This document shows positions 48,719 through 56,067 of a stretch of DNA of 57,913 bases, one piece after another. The translations under genes were made by a program, and so were the position numbers. The notes under the pieces are model-generated. The model was given only the letters and a program-made list of their open reading frames with translations. It did not search any database and had not been told where the DNA came from. The DNA lies in the NCBI GenBank assembly GCA_024401295.1, contig JAKSLG010000016.1, positions 1-57,913 on the forward strand. The letters run 5' to 3'. The stretch comes from Bacteroidales bacterium (GTDB taxonomy: Bacteria; Bacteroidota; Bacteroidia; Bacteroidales; Marinilabiliaceae). Within the stretch, counting starts at the first letter, position 1; every line of letters starts with the position of its first letter.

Positions 48719-50623
48719 ATGGGAAAGATTATTGGTATCGACCTTGGCACAACAAACTCATGTGTGTCAGTCATGGAAGGCTCTGAGCCTATCGTAATCG
48801 CGAATAGCGAAGGCAAGCGCACAACACCTTCAGTCGTTGCATTCATCGACGGTGGCGAGCGCAAGATTGGTGACCCTGCAAAGCGTCAGGCTGTCACAAA
48901 TCCTCATAAGACAATCTACTCTATCAAGCGCTTCATGGGTGAGACATACGATCGTCTCTCGAAGGAAATTGAGCGAGTACCTTACAAGGTTGCCAAGGGT
49001 GACAACAACACACCACGTGTTGACATCGACGGCCGCCTCTACACTCCACAGGAAATCTCTGCAATGATTCTTCAGAAGATGAAGAAGACTGCTGAGGAAT
49101 ATCTCGGCCAGGAAGTGACAGAAGCTGTCATCACAGTTCCTGCATACTTCAACGACGCTCAGCGTCAGGCAACTAAGGAAGCAGGCCAGATCGCAGGCCT
49201 CAACGTTCGCCGTATCGTGAACGAGCCAACAGCTGCTGCTCTTGCATACGGTCTCGACAAGAAGAAAGACGACATGAAGATTGTAGTGTTCGACTGCGGT
49301 GGCGGTACACACGATGTATCGGTCCTCGAACTTGGCGATGGCGTATTTGAAGTGAAATCAACAGATGGTGATACACACCTCGGTGGCGATGACTTCGACC
49401 ACAGAATCATTGACTGGCTTGCAGACGAGTTCAAGAGCAACGAAGGTGTTGACCTCCGTCAAGACCCAATGGCACTTCAGCGTTTGAAAGAGGCTGCTGA
49501 GAAGGCAAAGATCGAGCTCTCTTCATCAGCTTCTACAGAAATCAACTTGCCATACATTTCTGTTGCAAACGGCATGCCTAAGCACCTTGTAACAACACTT
49601 ACACGTGCAAAATTCGAACAGCTCATCGACGACCTCATCAAGCGTACAATTGATCCATGCCGCACAGCACTTCAGAACGCAGGTCTCTCAGTTTCAGATA
49701 TCGACGAGATCATCCTCGTAGGTGGTTCAACACGTATCCCTGCAATTCAGGCTGCTGTTGAGCAGTTCTTCGGCAAGGCACCATCTAAGGGCGTTAACCC
49801 AGACGAAGTTGTTGCCGTTGGTGCAGCAATTCAGGGTGCAGTCCTCACAGGCGAGGTTAAGGATGTCCTCCTCCTCGACGTGACTCCACTTTCACTCGGT
49901 ATCGAGACAATGGGTGGCGTGATGACACGACTCATCGACGCAAACACTACAATCCCTACAAAGAAGAGCCAGGTATTCTCAACTGCAGCCGACAATCAGC
50001 CAGCCGTTGACATCCACGTTCTTCAGGGCGAACGTCCAATGGCAGCACAGAATAAGAGCATCGGTAACTTCCAGCTCAACAATATTCCACCAGCACCACG
50101 TGGCGTTCCACAGATTGAGGTGACATTCGACATCGACGCAAACGGTATCCTCAACGTAACAGCCAAGGACAAGGCAACTGGCAAGGAACAGTCAATCCGC
50201 ATTGAGGCATCATCGGGTCTTTCTGATGACGAAATCAAGCGTATGAAGGCTGAGGCTGAGGCTAATGCTGCTGCCGACAATGCTGCAAAGGAGAAGGTTG
50301 AGAAGATCAACCAGGCCGATTCGATGATTTTCCAGACAGAGAAGCAGCTCAAGGAATTCGGCGACAAACTTCCTGCAGACAAGAAGTCTGAAATCGAAGG
50401 CGCACTTGCGAAGCTCAAGGAAGCTCATAAGAATCAGGACATTGCTGCAATCGACACAGCAATGAATGAGCTCAACACAATCTTCCAGGCAGCATCACAG
50501 CAGATGTATCAGCAGGCAGGACCACAGGACGGCCCTCAAGCAGGTCCACAGGGCGGTGCTAACAACGGCGGCCAGAAGAGCGGCGACGACGTAACAGACG
50601 TGGACTTCGAGGAGGTTAAGTAG
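48719..50623 (+). CDS. dnaK: Chaperone DnaK (Hsp70)
   Basis: 634 residues. ATPase domain with [16 protein letters not shown] at the start, [44 protein letters not shown] and [13 protein letters not shown]. The substrate domain starts near 385 ([18 protein letters not shown]), followed by a helical lid and a Gly/Gln/Pro-rich tail ending in the EEVK-type acidic C-terminus. DnaK folds and protects proteins with DnaJ and GrpE, neither of which is adjacent here. Monocistronic, ended by the hairpin at 50656-50689. Confidence 0.97.
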
Positions 50624-50689: not shown

Positions 50690-50740
50690 CTGTTATTTGT
50701 TAATTATTGGTTGTAAGGTTGTTTTGATAGATTTTCTAGC

Positions 50741-50764
50741 TATATTTGCACCATATTTGTACCG
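50741..50764 (+). promoter_or_regulatory. Promoter box and possible attachment core of the element
   Basis: TATATTTGCACC (50741-50752) is followed at once by ATATTTGTACC. The first fits the -7 promoter consensus and, apart from one base, the GTANNTTTGC core described for CTnDOT attB sites. The same ATATTTG(C/T)AC words recur inside the element at 53397-53405 and 54022-54030. The junction of chromosome and element is probably near here. Confidence 0.4.
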
Positions 50765-50790
50765 CGCCTTAATTCGGAGACAAGGTGCGC

Positions 50791-50829
50791 CTTATTAGGT
50801 CTTATTATGTCTTAACAAGTCTTATTACC
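50791..50829 (+). repeat. Decamer array 1 (GTCTTATTAN x4)
   Basis: Four tandem units with an exact 10-base period: CTTATTAGGT, CTTATTATGT, CTTAACAAGT, CTTATTACCG. The array ends 3 bases before the ATG of the double-HTH gene, so a bound protein would block its translation-start region and sit on the promoter-proximal leader. Confidence 0.8.
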
Positions 50830-50832
50830 GAT

Positions 50833-51393
50833 ATGCCAGCAGCTAAGTATAACATAGAGAGAACGTGTGCCTGTTGTGGTGCTTCTTTCAAGGCAAAAAC
50901 GATAGACTCTGTCTATTGTTCAAAGGCATGCAGCAACAAAGCTTATAAGTTACGCATGAAAGAGAAAAAAGAAGAGGAAGAGAAACGTCACAGATCGGAA
51001 GCTATTTCTGAGAATCGTCTTTTCGTATCTGTTTCGGAAGCAGTTGACATGTTCGGAATAAGCAAAGACACAATTCGTCGTTTGATAAAGAAAGGAAGAT
51101 TGAGTGCTACAAATCTTGGAGAACGATTAACTCGTATCAGTCTCGCAAGTCTTCAGGCGATGTTTCCCAAGGAGGAACAAAAGAACCGAAACACGAATCC
51201 TGTTCAAACACCCAACGAAAGACTCAACCCAGAAGAGTGTTATACTATAGGTGAGATACCCGAGAAGTTCGGAGTCTCTTCAAAGACAGTCTACGACATG
51301 ATCCGAAGGTATGGCATTCCCAAACAGCAGATTGGCAAGTATGTATATGTATCAAAAAAGTTAATTGAAAATATTTTAGGCTCTCCAAAATGA
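50833..51393 (+). CDS. Zinc-finger, double helix-turn-helix (excisionase-type) protein
   Basis: 186 residues. A Cys cluster CACCG...YCSKAC (about 11-33) suggests a small zinc finger. A charged KE-rich helix and two excisionase/MerR-like HTH domains follow: about 62-110 (FVSVSEAVDMFGISKDTIRRLIKKGRL pattern) and about 140-184 (YTIGEIPEKFGVSSKTVYDMIRRYGI pattern). Such genes accompany tyrosine integrases of Bacteroidetes elements and may direct excision. The ATG at 50833 is chosen over the upstream frame, which runs through the decamer array. It overlaps the integrase by 4 bases (ATGA). Confidence 0.85.
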   Translation: MPAAKYNIERTCACCGASFKAKTIDSVYCSKACSNKAYKLRMKEKKEEEEKRHRSEAISENRLFVSVSEAVDMFGISKDTIRRLIKKGRLSATNLGERLTRISLASLQAMFPKEEQKNRNTNPVQTPNERLNPEECYTIGEIPEKFGVSSKTVYDMIRRYGIPKQQIGKYVYVSKKLIENILGSPK

Positions 51394-52646
51394 AAAAAGC
51401 ACTTACCCATACAAAAGCGACTGTACGTCTACGCAAGTCAGAATATGCTAACGAGTGGTATCTGTTCGTTGAGTCATATCCTGTATTTGAAAAAGGTAGT
51501 TCAACTCCTAAGAGAGTACGTGAATATCTCAATAGAGTGATAACAACTCCTATTTGGGATAAATCTCGCTCAGCGAGGACAACAGACTCAGGCAAAACAC
51601 TAAAACCTAAGAGAGACTCAAATGGCGTTATACTTTGTAAGTCTGAATTGGATCAGGAGAACTGCATATATGCTGATAGCATAAGGAAATTAAGGCAAAA
51701 AGAGTACGACAACGCTTCACTTTATACCGAAACTGAGGCTGAGCAGGCTGAGTTGCAGAATAAAATGCAATCTAACTTCTTTGAATTTTACGATAGAGCA
51801 AATATGCAGCTTCATGCTAGAAGTTCATACGCTATTATAATCAATTGGAATCGAGTAAGAGAATTGGTAAAGCTATTTGTTGGTAGCGAAGACTTAACAT
51901 TTTCTCAGATAGACCTTCAATTTGTTGAAAGATTCAGGTCATTCTTATTAACAGCTCCATGCGGTGGAAATAAAAGCGGTACCGTATCTCAGAATACAGC
52001 TTCTACTTATTTTTCTGTATTTAAGGCAGCTCTAAAGCAAGCTTTCGTAGAAGGATACTTTGTTTCTGATATTTCGGCTAAAGCAAAAGGCATTCAAGAA
52101 CAAGAATGCAGACGAGAGCATCTGAGCACCGAAGAACTCAATATCTTGGCATCTACCCCTTGTGATAAACCAATAGTAAAACGGGCAGCTTTATTCTCTG
52201 CACTGACAGGACTTCGTCATTGTGACATTCAGAAACTTACATGGTCTGAGGTTCAGAATAATGGAGACAAATACGTGCCAAACTTCACTCAGAAGAAAAC
52301 GAAGGGAGTTGAGTATATGCCTATTAGTTCTATTGCATATCAACTATGTGGCGAACGTGGAGAAGACAATCAATTGGTATTTGAAAATCTCCCTGATCCA
52401 TCTTGGATATCTAAGCCGTTGCAACGGTGGATAAAAGCGGCAAACATCAATCGTCGTATTACATTCCATTGCTTCAGACATACATTTGCTACATTGCAGC
52501 TTGTAAATGGCACTGATATTTATACTGTCAGTAAGATGCTTGGTCACACGAATGTGAAAACAACCCAAATATATGCCAAGGTAATTGATGAGAAAAAACA
52601 GAAAGCCGCAGATGCAATCAAGATAGACCTTGATGACATAATGTAG
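51390..52646 (+). CDS. Tyrosine recombinase / integrase
   Basis: 418 residues. An N-terminal arm-binding and SAM-like core-binding region (about 1-230) precedes the catalytic domain. The catalytic set is complete: R276 in TGLRHCDI, a likely Lys near 303, H360 and R363 in FHCFRHTF, H386 in LGHTNVK and Y395 in TTQIYAKV. Typical of integrases of Bacteroides mobile elements (phage_integrase with an N-terminal Arm-DNA-bind region). It should move the element whose left end lies near 50.75 kb. Confidence 0.95.
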   Translation: MKKALTHTKATVRLRKSEYANEWYLFVESYPVFEKGSSTPKRVREYLNRVITTPIWDKSRSARTTDSGKTLKPKRDSNGVILCKSELDQENCIYADSIRKLRQKEYDNASLYTETEAEQAELQNKMQSNFFEFYDRANMQLHARSSYAIIINWNRVRELVKLFVGSEDLTFSQIDLQFVERFRSFLLTAPCGGNKSGTVSQNTASTYFSVFKAALKQAFVEGYFVSDISAKAKGIQEQECRREHLSTEELNILASTPCDKPIVKRAALFSALTGLRHCDIQKLTWSEVQNNGDKYVPNFTQKKTKGVEYMPISSIAYQLCGERGEDNQLVFENLPDPSWISKPLQRWIKAANINRRITFHCFRHTFATLQLVNGTDIYTVSKMLGHTNVKTTQIYAKVIDEKKQKAADAIKIDLDDIM

Positions 52647-52889
52647 CTATCACGTTGATTTGTGGTATTGAATATGATTCGATTGAGGTGAAATGCGAGT
52701 TCAATCTTGGTTTCATTGAGAAATAATGGAACTCGATTGAGTACGAATTGAGGTTCAATATCGGAATATTGGGATTTGATTATGTTTTAATTGCGTATCA
52801 ACCTCCAATACTCAATAGAATCAAAGTAAATATCACAAAAATACTCATTGCAACATGGTAATAACCGATTCTTTTCAATATTGAACGAT
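52647..52889. other. AT-rich gap after the integrase
   Basis: About 240 bases with no gene. Several GATT/ATTGAG-type words recur (52670-52770, for example TTCGATTGAGG, CTCGATTGAG, GAATTGAGGTTCAAT), giving an irregular, repeat-like texture without exact period. No terminator recognised. Confidence 0.4.
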
Positions 52890-53250
52890 ATGCAGAACGA
52901 ACAGAATACCATTATCTACAATACCATTGATGGTAAAGCCTGCCGATGATGGAAAGCAATACAATGTAAGATTCTATTCTTTAGACATGTCAAAAGTTGC
53001 GTACGAAGGAGCAAAAAGATCTAACCATTGCTTTTTGGAGAGACAATGTTAACAACCTACTGGAATTTCAGGGGAAAGATATATTGAAAGGACCTGGGTC
53101 TGTTACCAATGCGGAGATGGAGGCTCACGTAAAAGCCGTATATGAGGAATTCGACCTAAGACGAAACATAGGGATGCGTTGCTAGCAGATCAAGAAGATA
53201 ACGATGACTTGGACGATTTAACATCTCAGGTAAAAGACATTAAGCATTAG
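52890..53250 (+). pseudogene. Decayed RhuM-like gene
   Basis: Fragments in three registers. 52890-52946 gives MQNEQNTIIYNTIDGKA then stops, like the N-terminus of RhuM-family proteins. 52948-52989 gives DGKQYNVRFYSLDM, like their middle. 52997 onward gives an FWRDNVNNLLEF...DILKGPGSVTNAEMEAH C-terminal segment, which after one more frameshift near 53165 continues as RDALLADQEDNDDLDDL to a stop at 53250. Most of the ~1-kb gene is deleted. The family assignment rests on these short matches. Confidence 0.6.
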
Positions 53251-53313: not shown

Positions 53314-53374
53314 ACAACCTATACAAACCTATACTAATCCGTACTAACCTATACTAACTTATACTAACCTATAC
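53314..53374 (-). repeat. Decamer array 2a (GTTAGTATAG on minus strand)
   Basis: Five full 10-base units at 53321-53370 plus partial units at both ends. On the plus strand they read ATACAAACCT, ATACTAATCC, GTACTAACCT, ATACTAACTT, ATACTAACCT. Confidence 0.85.
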
Positions 53375-53398
53375 ATTGCTAGTTTGCGCTTGTAGATA

Positions 53399-53412
53399 TT
53401 TGTACCTACAAA
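53399..53412. promoter_or_regulatory. Palindrome TTTGTA-CC-TACAAA
   Basis: A perfect dyad midway between arrays 2a and 2b. The equivalent in copy B (54024-54037) reads TTTGCA-CT-TGCAAA: both arms changed together, so pairing is kept. Confidence 0.7.
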
Positions 53413-53448
53413 GGCAAAAACGAACTACAGATAAGGACACATGCTAGA

Positions 53449-53505
53449 GTCATATAAACTCATATAAAGTCATAAAAAGTCCGATAAAGTCCGATAAAGT
53501 CATAT
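53449..53505 (+). repeat. Decamer array 2b (GTCATATAAA/GTCCGATAAA)
   Basis: Five full 10-base units at 53451-53500 (CATATAAACT, CATATAAAGT, CATAAAAAGT, CCGATAAAGT twice) and a partial sixth. Units start with GT on the plus strand, opposite to array 2a. Confidence 0.85.
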
Positions 53506-53850
53506 CGCAAGATTTGAAGATTATTCTTTTGTAGTCGCATTTGACATTGCTAATGCCTCATCAGATTCTAATCCGCAGAATCTGAACAGAGATAACAAGC
53601 GGGTTTACGAAATACGACAATGAAACGACAAACATGAAGTCTTGTTAAAGACAAACAAAAGATAAAGTTGATGGTTTGTATCACTGTTAGTTGTTGCGAT
53701 TAACGACAAAAAGATAGTCCATCATTTGACAAACCAGCAGTCCAGTATTCGACCATAACTATAAGAATAAAACAATAAAAAATAAGAATAAATATCCTCT
53801 AGCATCCCATAGGGATGCCGTGGGTACTCAATCAAACAACACACATCATT

Positions 53851-53982
53851 ATGAATCAAACAATATCACTTGTTGAGATGCCTGAATCGTTAAGCATTAT
53901 CCTAAAGAAGGCCAAAAATAATGCAGGTATTCGTATCAAGACTGAATCTATACCCATGCAAATCTCTACTAACTCCTACTAA
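53851..53982 (+). pseudogene. Truncated first copy of the HTH gene
   Basis: 43 codons from ATG to TAA. The first ~20 residues (MNQTISLVEMPESLSIILKK) parallel the start of the intact gene at 54486 (MNITFNEIPEALSMILDK). The frame then runs into array 3a and stops, so the HTH domain is absent. It is either a remnant of the duplication or a short peptide gene; I favour a remnant. Confidence 0.6.
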
Positions 53983-54000
53983 TCCCTACTAACTCCTACA
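53961..54000 (-). repeat. Decamer array 3a (GTTAGTAGGA on minus strand)
   Basis: Four 10-base units: AATCTCTACT, AACTCCTACT, AATCCCTACT, AACTCCTACA. Related to array 2a in the GTTAGTA half only. Confidence 0.8.
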
Positions 54001-54023
54001 TTGATAGTTAGTGCTTGTAGATA

Positions 54024-54037
54024 TTTGCACTTGCAAA
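54024..54037. promoter_or_regulatory. Palindrome TTTGCA-CT-TGCAAA
   Basis: Perfect dyad between arrays 3a and 3b, with compensatory changes relative to 53399-53412. Confidence 0.7.
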
Positions 54038-54070
54038 GGCCAATAAAACAACTACAAAAAGGATAAGAAA

Positions 54071-54140
54071 AGTTGCCGATATGTTCCGAAAGTTACCAAT
54101 AGTTACCGAAAGACGCCAAAAGTTACCGAAAGTTGCATAT
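54071..54140 (+). repeat. Decamer array 3b (AGTTACCGAA x7)
   Basis: Seven 10-base units: AGTTGCCGAT, ATGTTCCGAA, AGTTACCAAT, AGTTACCGAA, AGACGCCAAA, AGTTACCGAA, AGTTGCATAT. Sequence differs strongly from array 2b although the bases right after both arrays (GCAAGATTTGAAG) are identical. Confidence 0.85.
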
Positions 54141-54485
54141 TGCAAGATTTGAAGATTATTCTTTTGTAGTCGCATTTGATATAGCTAATGCCTCATCAGA
54201 TTCTAATCCGCAGAATCTGACTAGAGATAACAAGCGGTTTTACGAAATACGACAATGAAACGACAAACATGAAGTCATGTTGAAGACAAACAAAAGACAA
54301 AATTAATGGTTTGTATCACTGTTAGTTGTTGCGATTAACGACAAAAAGATAGTCCATCATTCGACAAACCGGCAGTCCAGTATTAGACCATAACTATAAG
54401 AATAAAATAATAAAAAAGAAGAATAAATATCCTCTAGCATCCCATAGGGATGCCGTGGGTGCTCAACCAAACAACATACATCATT

Positions 54486-54830
54486 ATGAATATAACATTT
54501 AATGAGATACCTGAAGCGTTAAGCATGATCTTAGATAAGATCCGAGGTATTGAGGGAATTCTCCAGGGCGGACAATATAGCGATCGTCCTCAAGAAGACA
54601 GATGGTTTACTGTTGATGAAATCTGTGATTATCTCCCAGAAAAGCCTGCGAAATCGACTTTGTATGCCTGGATAGGACAACATCACATTCCTTACCATAA
54701 AACAGGTAAGCGTCTTCGTTTCCTCAAATCGGAAATAGACGAGTGGCTTAAACTTAATCGTCGAAAGAGTTTGGCAGAGATTCAAGCTGAAGCTGCCGAG
54801 TACGCAAGAACCCATAAAACTAGATTCTAA
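54486..54830 (+). CDS. Helix-turn-helix (excisionase/MerR-like) DNA-binding protein
   Basis: 114 residues: an amphipathic N-terminal helix (about 5-30), a winged HTH of the HTH_17 type at about 41-89 (FTVDEICDYLPEKPAKSTLYAWIGQ, then HKTGKRLRFLKSEIDEWL), and a basic/helical tail. The ATG at 54486 is conserved in the truncated copy A and begins after a 345-base leader. It overlaps the next gene by one base (TAATG). As first gene behind two decamer arrays it is the best candidate for the protein that binds them. That role is inferred. Confidence 0.82.
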   Translation: MNITFNEIPEALSMILDKIRGIEGILQGGQYSDRPQEDRWFTVDEICDYLPEKPAKSTLYAWIGQHHIPYHKTGKRLRFLKSEIDEWLKLNRRKSLAEIQAEAAEYARTHKTRF

Positions 54831-55486
54831 TGTCAGGGGGGTACATAAAAATTCAGCGAGACTTCATTGAAACGTGGCACGACAAGCCTAATGTCTGTGC
54901 CATGTACCTTCACTTGATGTCTTCTGCGAATATAATGGCAAAAGAATGGCAAGGCATGACAGTCAATAGAGGAGAGTTTGTCACTAGCAAAGAGAAGTTG
55001 GCTCAAGCTCTTAATCTATCAGTACGTCAGGTGCGGACTATCCTGTCTTGTCTTTCAAAAGATAAGCGTATTGCCATAGAATCGACGAAACGATGGACAA
55101 AGATTATCATCTGTGATTATGATTGTTTTGAAAACAAACAACCAATGCCAGAGATTATTGATAGCTCATCAGCGCATAATCCTTCTATGGATGGTAAGAA
55201 GAATACGTCAGTATCCAAAGCATCTACGACAGCCAAGAGGGAGCACTTCTCAAAACCTTCTATTGACGAAGTCCGAGAATATTGCTCATCGAAAAAAAGC
55301 TGCATCAACGCCGATGAATTCTGGAACTTTTATGAAAGCAAGGGGTGGCTAATTGGCAAGTCACCCATGAAAAACTGGCATGCAGCGATAGCTTCATGGG
55401 AACGTAAACGAACTAGTGCTTCGAGCGTCAGCACTATTCTGACAAACAACAGTATAGATAAATATAATAACGACATAACATGGTAA
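54830..55486 (+). CDS. Phage-type replication initiator-like protein
   Basis: 218 residues. The N-terminal half looks like a winged-helix of the replication-protein-O type: YIKIQRDFIETWHDKPNVCAMYLHLMSSAN, then GEFVTSKEKLAQALNLSVRQVRTILSCL, about residues 5-85. A Ser/Thr-rich linker follows. The C-terminal DnaT/DnaD-like stretch (about 143-192: PSIDEVREYCSSKK, FWNFYESKGWLIGKSPMKNWHAAIASWE) often recruits a helicase loader. Both ends overlap neighbours (1 base upstream, 7 bases downstream), so the three genes form one translation unit with the DnaC-like loader. Confidence 0.75.
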   Translation: MSGGYIKIQRDFIETWHDKPNVCAMYLHLMSSANIMAKEWQGMTVNRGEFVTSKEKLAQALNLSVRQVRTILSCLSKDKRIAIESTKRWTKIIICDYDCFENKQPMPEIIDSSSAHNPSMDGKKNTSVSKASTTAKREHFSKPSIDEVREYCSSKKSCINADEFWNFYESKGWLIGKSPMKNWHAAIASWERKRTSASSVSTILTNNSIDKYNNDITW

Positions 55487-56067
55487 ACTCTTTTTCGGAA
55501 ATAATCGAAGCCTACAACAAGCATCTGCCGAAAGAAAAGATTGTATTTCCACCGATACATTTCCAGATTTCCAATGCTAAGAACTGGATGCAGCATGGAC
55601 TGTTTCATTGGTTAGGCGATAAGGCCAAGTGGATGAATGAATATGATCAAGTAGCCGACTGGCTTACAGACAACAATGGCAGAGGCTTATTGTGTATGGG
55701 TAATTGTGGAAGAGGAAAAACCTTGTTGTGTACGAAAATCATTCCACCAATACTCCTAGCAACTGATAACAGAGTGCTTCAAAGCTTTACAATGCAGGAA
55801 GTAGCCACACACCTTGATTCTCTTCTTACAAAAAGGATTCTATGTCTCGACGACGTAGGCACAGAAGCGGATAGCGTCAAATACGGAGAACGTAGGCAGC
55901 CATTCGTAGAACTTGTTGACTCTGCCGAACGCAATAATGGTATTCTGGTTATCACGACTAACCTTACTGCCCAAGAAATTGCTACCAAATATGGTGAACG
56001 CACACTTGATAGACTAAAAGCTCTCACAAAGCTTGTTCATTTCAAGGGTGAAAGCATGAGGAATTGA
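55480..56067 (+). CDS. DnaC/IstB-like AAA+ helicase loader
   Basis: 195 residues. Walker A GNCGRGKT at 74-81, Walker B ILCLDD at 120-125, sensor-1 ITTN near 158-161 and an arginine-finger-like region KYGERTLDRLK at 170-180. Family members load the replicative helicase at phage or plasmid origins; IstB-type members help transposases. The preceding initiator-like gene supports the loader role. Followed by a terminator at 56075. Confidence 0.87.
   Translation: MVNSFSEIIEAYNKHLPKEKIVFPPIHFQISNAKNWMQHGLFHWLGDKAKWMNEYDQVADWLTDNNGRGLLCMGNCGRGKTLLCTKIIPPILLATDNRVLQSFTMQEVATHLDSLLTKRILCLDDVGTEADSVKYGERRQPFVELVDSAERNNGILVITTNLTAQEIATKYGERTLDRLKALTKLVHFKGESMRN

What the first reader, a model, noticed from the sequence alone, without database searches (positions are those of the whole stretch)
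53314..54140. Four phased decamer arrays, paired head-to-head around palindromes
Seen: two modules, each with a leftward array (units GTTAGTAnnn on the minus strand) and a rightward array (units GTYnnnnAAA-like on the plus strand), four to seven units each, period exactly 10 bases, flanking a 14-base dyad. Known: R1-type plasmid parC centromeres use clusters of ~11-bp repeats on both sides of a promoter, bound by ParR; lambda Xis forms short filaments on phased sites; iterons of origins are usually longer (17-22 bp). Inference: one protein per helical turn on one DNA face builds a curved or filamentous complex for partition, origin control or excision, in an element where I see no ParM/ParA.
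Basis: partly seen in the sequence, partly recalled or inferred. Interest (0 to 1): 0.9.

Follow-up and report, generated by a model that had tools for sequence, protein, structure and literature searches.

The report
Mirrored ten-base arrays controlling mobile element
Four stretches of evenly spaced ten-letter DNA repeats, arranged as two mirror-image pairs in front of the excision and replication genes of a mobile element, look like landing tracks on which small excision-type proteins line up one per helix turn; this is a doubled and unusually large version of a control design known from phages.

Summary
The fourth reported array scores lower; its first steps are 11 and 9.

The arrays lie in an integrative element at the 3' end of dnaK. 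In 78 of 87 relatives of its integrase, dnaK stands just upstream. The family's left end carries CTTA boxes at exactly 10 bp (53 of 85 sequences; none at other spacings tested). The leader of the next operon (hth2) carries mirrored 2+2 sites at 11 bp in 38 of 46 group-2 relatives.

HTH2 and Xis resemble filament-forming excisionases in predicted fold. Such proteins (phage 186 Apl) bind phased repeats at att and in the control region, as seen here. I read the arrays as excisionase-type filament tracks controlling hth2-rep-dnaC. Origin iterons are the main rival: most Rep homologues examined have repeats inside rep, this Rep does not. Partition is not supported. No binding was measured. Novelty: new variant of a known kind.

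The parts
50719..50748 (+). promoter-like TTG-n-TATATTTG (Bacteroidota-type -33/-7; the consensus is recalled) before xis-int
   Evidence: regex scan
50742..50763 (+). two 11-bp direct repeats ATATTTGCACC/ATATTTGTACC at the left end; conserved at attL of relatives and also present at the three attR found, so perhaps arm-type integrase sites (inference)
50789..50828 (+). fifth array: four decamers GTCTTATTAn (first begins GCC) at the left end (attL), before xis
   Evidence: family-wide CTTA boxes at 10 bp
50833..51393 (+). Xis-like protein: zinc-ribbon-like N-terminus plus two HTH_17 stretches
   Evidence: Pfam HTH_17 8e-18, two stretches; family profile matches Pukovnik Xis 4j2n E 3e-6; model
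51390..52646 (+). tyrosine integrase with Arm-DNA-bind_5, SAM-like and catalytic domains; family found next to dnaK
53317..53376 (-). module 1 left array, 6 decamers, TAGTATAGGT type
53399..53412 (.). module 1 dyad TTTGTACCTACAAA
53449..53508 (+). module 1 right array, 6 decamers, GTCnnATAAA type
53509..53849 (.). conserved spacer of module 1 (95% identical to that of module 2, no gaps), with AT-rich tract 53761-53794
53851..53945 (+). cut-off start of an hth2-like reading frame (module 1 copy)
53952..54001 (-). module 2 left array, 5 decamers, TAGTAGGAGT type
54024..54037 (.). module 2 dyad TTTGCACTTGCAAA
54072..54141 (+). module 2 right array, 7 units, GTTACCGAAA type, steps 11, 9, 10, 10, 10, 10
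54396..54429 (.). AT-rich tract of module 2 (counterpart of 53761-53794)
54486..54830 (+). HTH2, small winged-HTH protein (HTH_17), first gene behind the modules
54830..55486 (+). Rep: DnaD/lambda-O-like initiator without an evident intragenic iteron array
55480..56067 (+). DnaC-like helicase loader
   Evidence: PHROG 3277 E 2.8e-30

Best explanation
The modules are the control leader of the hth2-rep-dnaC operon of a dnaK-targeted integrative element. Each array is a track on which small winged-HTH proteins of the excisionase (Xis/Cox/Apl/BldC) kind, HTH2 and/or Xis of this element, bind cooperatively head to tail, one protomer per 10-bp turn, and bend the DNA. The two arrays of a module run in opposite directions from a palindrome, so two filaments of opposite polarity enclose it. 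The same kind of track at the left end (attL) ties excision to this switch. Occupancy would repress or set the operon and, at attL, direct the integrase towards excision. Shown: the arrays, their phasing, the family-wide attL array and the mirrored leaders of group 2, and the protein folds by profile or model. Inferred: which protein binds, filament formation, and the regulatory outcome.
Confidence: 0.55

Rival explanations
1. The modules are duplicated replication origins: the decamers are iterons bound by the lambda-O/DnaD-like Rep, moved out of the rep gene into the leader, with the AT-rich tract as unwinding element.
For: Of 25 Rep homologues examined, 18 have a significant 9-13-bp repeat stretch inside rep (p <= 0.01; in some the best stretch is an A-rich tract rather than an iteron-like array). 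L214 and L215 also have 11-bp arrays followed by an A-rich tract. The window rep has only a weak stretch at another place (p 0.05). With Tandem Repeats Finder, arrays lie inside rep in 13 of 23 homologues and outside, within about 1.5 kb, in 1 of 23 (L193, which has none inside), as in the window. The modules carry an AT-rich tract resembling that of L215. Lambdoid origins lie within O (PMC7466680, passages).
Against: Period 10 rather than 11 (9 of the 13 inside arrays have 11); four different unit types for one Rep; I saw no mirrored pairs among the Rep arrays listed; the AT-rich tract is about 250 bp from the arrays; the inside/outside pattern rests on two outside cases; attL has the same 10-bp design with no evident role for Rep.
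Confidence: 0.22
2. Operator of a cassette-specific regulator: in relatives the gene between int and hth2 changes together with the repeat motif in front of hth2; here that gene has been lost and the arrays answer to a regulator encoded elsewhere.
For: The 4 of 4 cluster-15 genes (L073, L075, L078, L087) go with AACCGGTT-type leaders and the 2 of 2 cluster-44 genes (L077, L142) with CACTCCG leaders; the 249-aa cluster goes with group 2. HTH2 does not vary with the motif.
Against: No such gene was seen between int and module 1 here, nor in the 0.5 kb available in G010; the group-1 motifs printed are mostly palindromes, not decamer arrays; the co-variation was not tested statistically.
Confidence: 0.12
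3. The modules are extra attachment or recombination sites (array - core - array, like attP).
For: The centre of module 1 holds ATATTTGTACC, an 11-mer of the left-end repeats, and that of module 2 a 10-mer (ATATTTGCAC) of the other left-end repeat; array-core-array layout.
Against: The three attR of relatives show no evident array within 400 bp and lie beside a short copy of the dnaK 3' end, which the modules lack; G010 keeps only ATATTTGC of the repeat but keeps the palindrome with one mismatch.
Confidence: 0.07
4. Partition centromere of the R1 parC/ParR or a related kind.
Against: No ParM/ParA/TubZ-like gene among the eight proteins scanned; excisionases match HTH2 better.
Confidence: 0.04

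Closest known systems
Phage 186 Apl operators (attP and pR-pL) and other RDF sites (lambda Xis, P2 Cox, Pukovnik Xis)
   Same: Direct repeats one helical turn apart, at att and in the switch region; small winged-HTH protein; weak discrimination (Apl paper, passages)
   Different: Here arrays come as mirrored pairs around a palindrome, in two diverged copies, 5 to 7 units each, with a different unit type in each array
BldC and RdfS filament operators
   Same: Head-to-tail protomers about one per DNA turn, loose consensus, variable repeat number (passages)
   Different: 9-bp repeats in BldC; no consensus in RdfS; no mirrored pairs in the passages read
Lambda-O-type intragenic origins
   Same: Repeat array and AT-rich tract in an element with an O/DnaD-like Rep and helicase loader
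   Different: Arrays lie outside rep, period 10, mirrored, four unit types, tract 250 bp away
CTnDOT/NBU1 integrase group
   Same: Bacteroidota integrase with arm-binding domain (IntCTnDOT subgroup in PMC8138268, passages); a regulator gene and excision operon behind int is recalled
   Different: Inserted at dnaK; phased decamers at attL
R1 parC/ParR
   Same: Two arrays of about 11-bp repeats flanking a centre (recalled)
   Different: No ParM/ParR seen in the part scanned

Membership tests
RDF/Xis-type filament operator | Direct repeats about one helical turn apart | tested here: met
RDF/Xis-type filament operator | Present both at att and in the regulatory region of the element | tested here: met
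   attL array 50789-50828 and leader arrays; that the leader is regulatory is inferred from its place
RDF/Xis-type filament operator | Small winged-HTH protein of the RDF fold encoded by the element | tested here: met
RDF/Xis-type filament operator | Cooperative binding and DNA bending by that protein | not testable with these tools
   needs EMSA and footprinting
Iteron origin of an O/DnaD-like Rep | Iteron array for the Rep | tested here: inconclusive
   Rep without evident intragenic array, arrays 0.7-1.5 kb upstream
Iteron origin of an O/DnaD-like Rep | AT-rich tract adjoining the iterons | tested here: inconclusive
   tract present but about 250 bp away
Iteron origin of an O/DnaD-like Rep | Autonomous replication | not testable with these tools
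   none
Type II (ParM/ParR) partition system | ParM-like ATPase gene in the locus | tested here: inconclusive
   none among eight proteins at 50.8-57.8 kb; the rest of the element lies beyond the contig end
Attachment site (attP) of this integrase | Copy of the dnaK 3' end beside the TTTGTACC-type repeats | tested here: not met
   none in the modules; present at the three attR found

The most novel reading that the evidence does not exclude
The leader is a two-channel switch. Each module is a palindrome enclosed by two excisionase-type filaments of opposite polarity, and its unit sequence has been re-specified while the 341-bp stretch behind it stayed 95% identical. The element therefore carries two operators of different specificity, and its excision and replication operon can be set by two different proteins (its own and that of a related element), a heteroimmunity- or helper-sensing device built from filament tracks that may double as the replication origin.
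Probability: 0.12. Interest if true: 0.75.

Novelty: new variant of a known kind. Interest (0 to 1): 0.5.

Why it matters
It points to a widespread family of Bacteroidota elements next to dnaK whose left end carries strictly phased arrays. It also gives five natural arrays with one spacing but five unit types in one element, a clean test of whether excisionase-type proteins read spacing rather than sequence. The 11-bp arrays inside many DnaD/O-like rep genes would help locate origins in uncultured phages and elements.

Tried and rejected
Tried without result: module DNA against plasmids and phages (no match) and in 100 related genomes (beyond this genome, short matches in 3 genomes, G010, G013, G024, of which only G010 is the module); core and dyad patterns in viral contigs (none); Rfam (two rows, both far below their family cut-offs); dnaK-end repeats inside the loci as attR (none convincing; attR of three relatives was found later by pattern); attR of this element in its own assembly (two weak matches, neither beside a dnaK end; the assembly is 75% complete). 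Comparing the stretch behind dnaK in genomes without this integrase did not settle the exact crossover; several loci there were read on the wrong strand and tell nothing. Only these support 'not seen in print'.

Considered and rejected: the 11-bp GTATAGG arrays of genome G013 as homologues (other phase; no integrase of this family at E <= 1e-60 in that genome); the array of L099/L105 as right end (it precedes a mob-like gene, by eye); modules as coding sequence (no long frame).

Rows dropped: L204 had no annotated gene and was left out of the Rep counts; L189 and L194 (gene cut at the contig start) are (25 homologues) but not (23); of the 42 listed Rep hits were fetched; of 104 integrase relatives 80 were kept by the tool; 15 of the 87 relatives gave no usable hth2 leader; the two HTH2 groups were split at 36% identity to the window protein; a first head-to-head detector was too loose (60 of 72 against 35.8 expected) and was replaced by the stricter test.

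Full report
What is there. The window is one whole contig (G000:C8) of an assembly held as 75% complete; near relatives are named Bacteroidia or Bacteroidales. At its right end an integrative element begins behind dnaK (48719-50623): left-end repeats, a decamer array, xis, int, two modules, hth2, rep, dnaC, then genes without clear family to the contig end. The four arrays and two dyads of the finding are as described, with two corrections: the last array has steps of 11 and 9 before it settles at 10, and a fifth decamer array lies at 50789-50828. For periods 8 to 13 nothing else in 57.9 kb reaches score 14.

The element family. The integrase was sought in 100 related genomes, own included (13 of 100 with E <= 1e-60), in the named genome collection (104 relatives, 80 kept) and in viral contigs (7). 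Of these 87 loci, 78 hold a dnaK match, which ends about 190 to 465 bases before the xis match; of the other 9, five begin at a contig end just before xis. The sequence between dnaK and xis is alike from Flavobacterium to Parabacteroides: two 11-bp repeats of the ATATTTGTACC type and then CTTA boxes. Right ends were found in 3 of 22 records searched, 36.6, 107 and 116 kb away, each with the same repeats followed by a short copy of the dnaK 3' end, GAAGAAGTnAAATA (by inspection). I infer that the target is the dnaK 3' end and that the repeats sit on both arms; the exact crossover was not determined.

Phased boxes at attL. Of 85 sequences of 110 bases before xis (window included), 53 have three or more CTTA/CTAA boxes in phase at exactly 10 bp; none has them at spacings 6 to 9 or 11 to 15; shuffles gave 0.1 or less. 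One more box often lies 22 bp upstream.

Leaders of hth2. The 72 usable leaders were split in two groups by HTH2 identity (cut at 36%). In group 2, 38 of 46 have two direct and two inverted 6-mers, both pairs 11 bp apart (mostly GTGTTT type; in L109/L143 another word at similar places). At the other spacings from 7 to 15, 0 to 7 of 46 qualify (7 at 9 bp). These 46 include close relatives and near-copies (L133, L136, L137), so they are not independent. In group 1, 0 of 26 qualify at 10 or 11 bp (1 at 13); the leaders printed hold palindromes of the AACCGGTT, CACTCCG or other kinds. So a mirrored, phased design in front of this operon is a trait of group 2, and the window, whose HTH2 is closer to group 1, carries a larger 10-bp version, twice. 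One other member of its subgroup is known, G010: its left array has about two units and its contig ends 3 bases after the 26-base motif that holds the dyad.

How the modules diverged. Module 1 against module 2: left arrays 62% identical, centre 78%, right arrays 56%, the following 341 bp 95% without gaps, the start of hth2 72%. Each array is fairly even within itself but differs from its counterpart. The arrays thus differ most yet keep their phase, which fits tracks that need spacing more than sequence, or operators that were re-specified.

Why not simply an origin. Rep matches DnaD-like loaders and O-like initiators. Its homologues often carry repeats inside the gene: 18 of 25 by a shuffle test, some of them A-rich tracts, 13 of 23 by Tandem Repeats Finder, and both of two further ones. 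Of the 13, 9 have an array of period 11. The window Rep has none of note, and its leader has arrays and an AT-rich tract. That is a fair case for displaced iterons, and the two roles could coexist. I rank it second because the period is 10 as at attL, the four unit types differ, and I saw no mirrored pairs among the Rep arrays.

Against my reading. HTH2 occurs in relatives that lack such arrays; HTH2 stretches identical over 63 residues (L079, L151) stand behind different leader motifs; the gene between int and hth2 goes with the motif in the clusters looked at; the promoter scan found no pair in the module centres; and nothing was measured.

Verdict. A real, well-phased structure of a known kind (excisionase-type repeat operators) in an unusual mirrored and doubled form, in a dnaK-associated element family that I did not find described in the searches named under Tried and rejected.

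Noticed in passing
window 52660-53250: Remains of a gene in broken frames between int and module 1; one frame (52997-53185) looks like the C-terminus of a RhuM-family protein (family recalled, no search made).
   Followed up: no
L027 2753-2814, L028 8400-8474, L029 8791-8849 (genome G013): Three arrays of GTATAGGnnTA with 11-bp period, close to the module 1 left unit but in another phase, in a genome without this integrase at E <= 1e-60.
   Followed up: partly
L072 19678-19750: Decamer array of AGTGACTTAA type (Tandem Repeats Finder: 6.4 copies), shortly before a promoter-like TAATTTTGC and a transglutaminase-like gene, 8.4 kb behind the integrase.
   Followed up: partly
L187, L188, L192, L199, L201, L202, L207, L212, L213, L214, L215: DnaD/O-like replication genes of phages and elements carry arrays of 11-bp direct repeats inside the gene, often followed by an A-rich tract: possible intragenic origins.
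   Followed up: yes
L089, L098, L144 about 15.6 kb: A shared stretch (AACAAAGGTGTTCAATTT...TTGCAAAAGACTTC) just before the loci diverge; role unknown.
   Followed up: no
G118:C8:180467-180522: Tandem 11-bp copies of TTATTTGTACC, like the left-end repeat of the dnaK elements, elsewhere in the Flavobacterium piscis genome.
   Followed up: no
L190 1411-1453: A Rep gene with palindromic 10-bp units GTAACGTTAC followed by a TATAGATA tract.
   Followed up: partly
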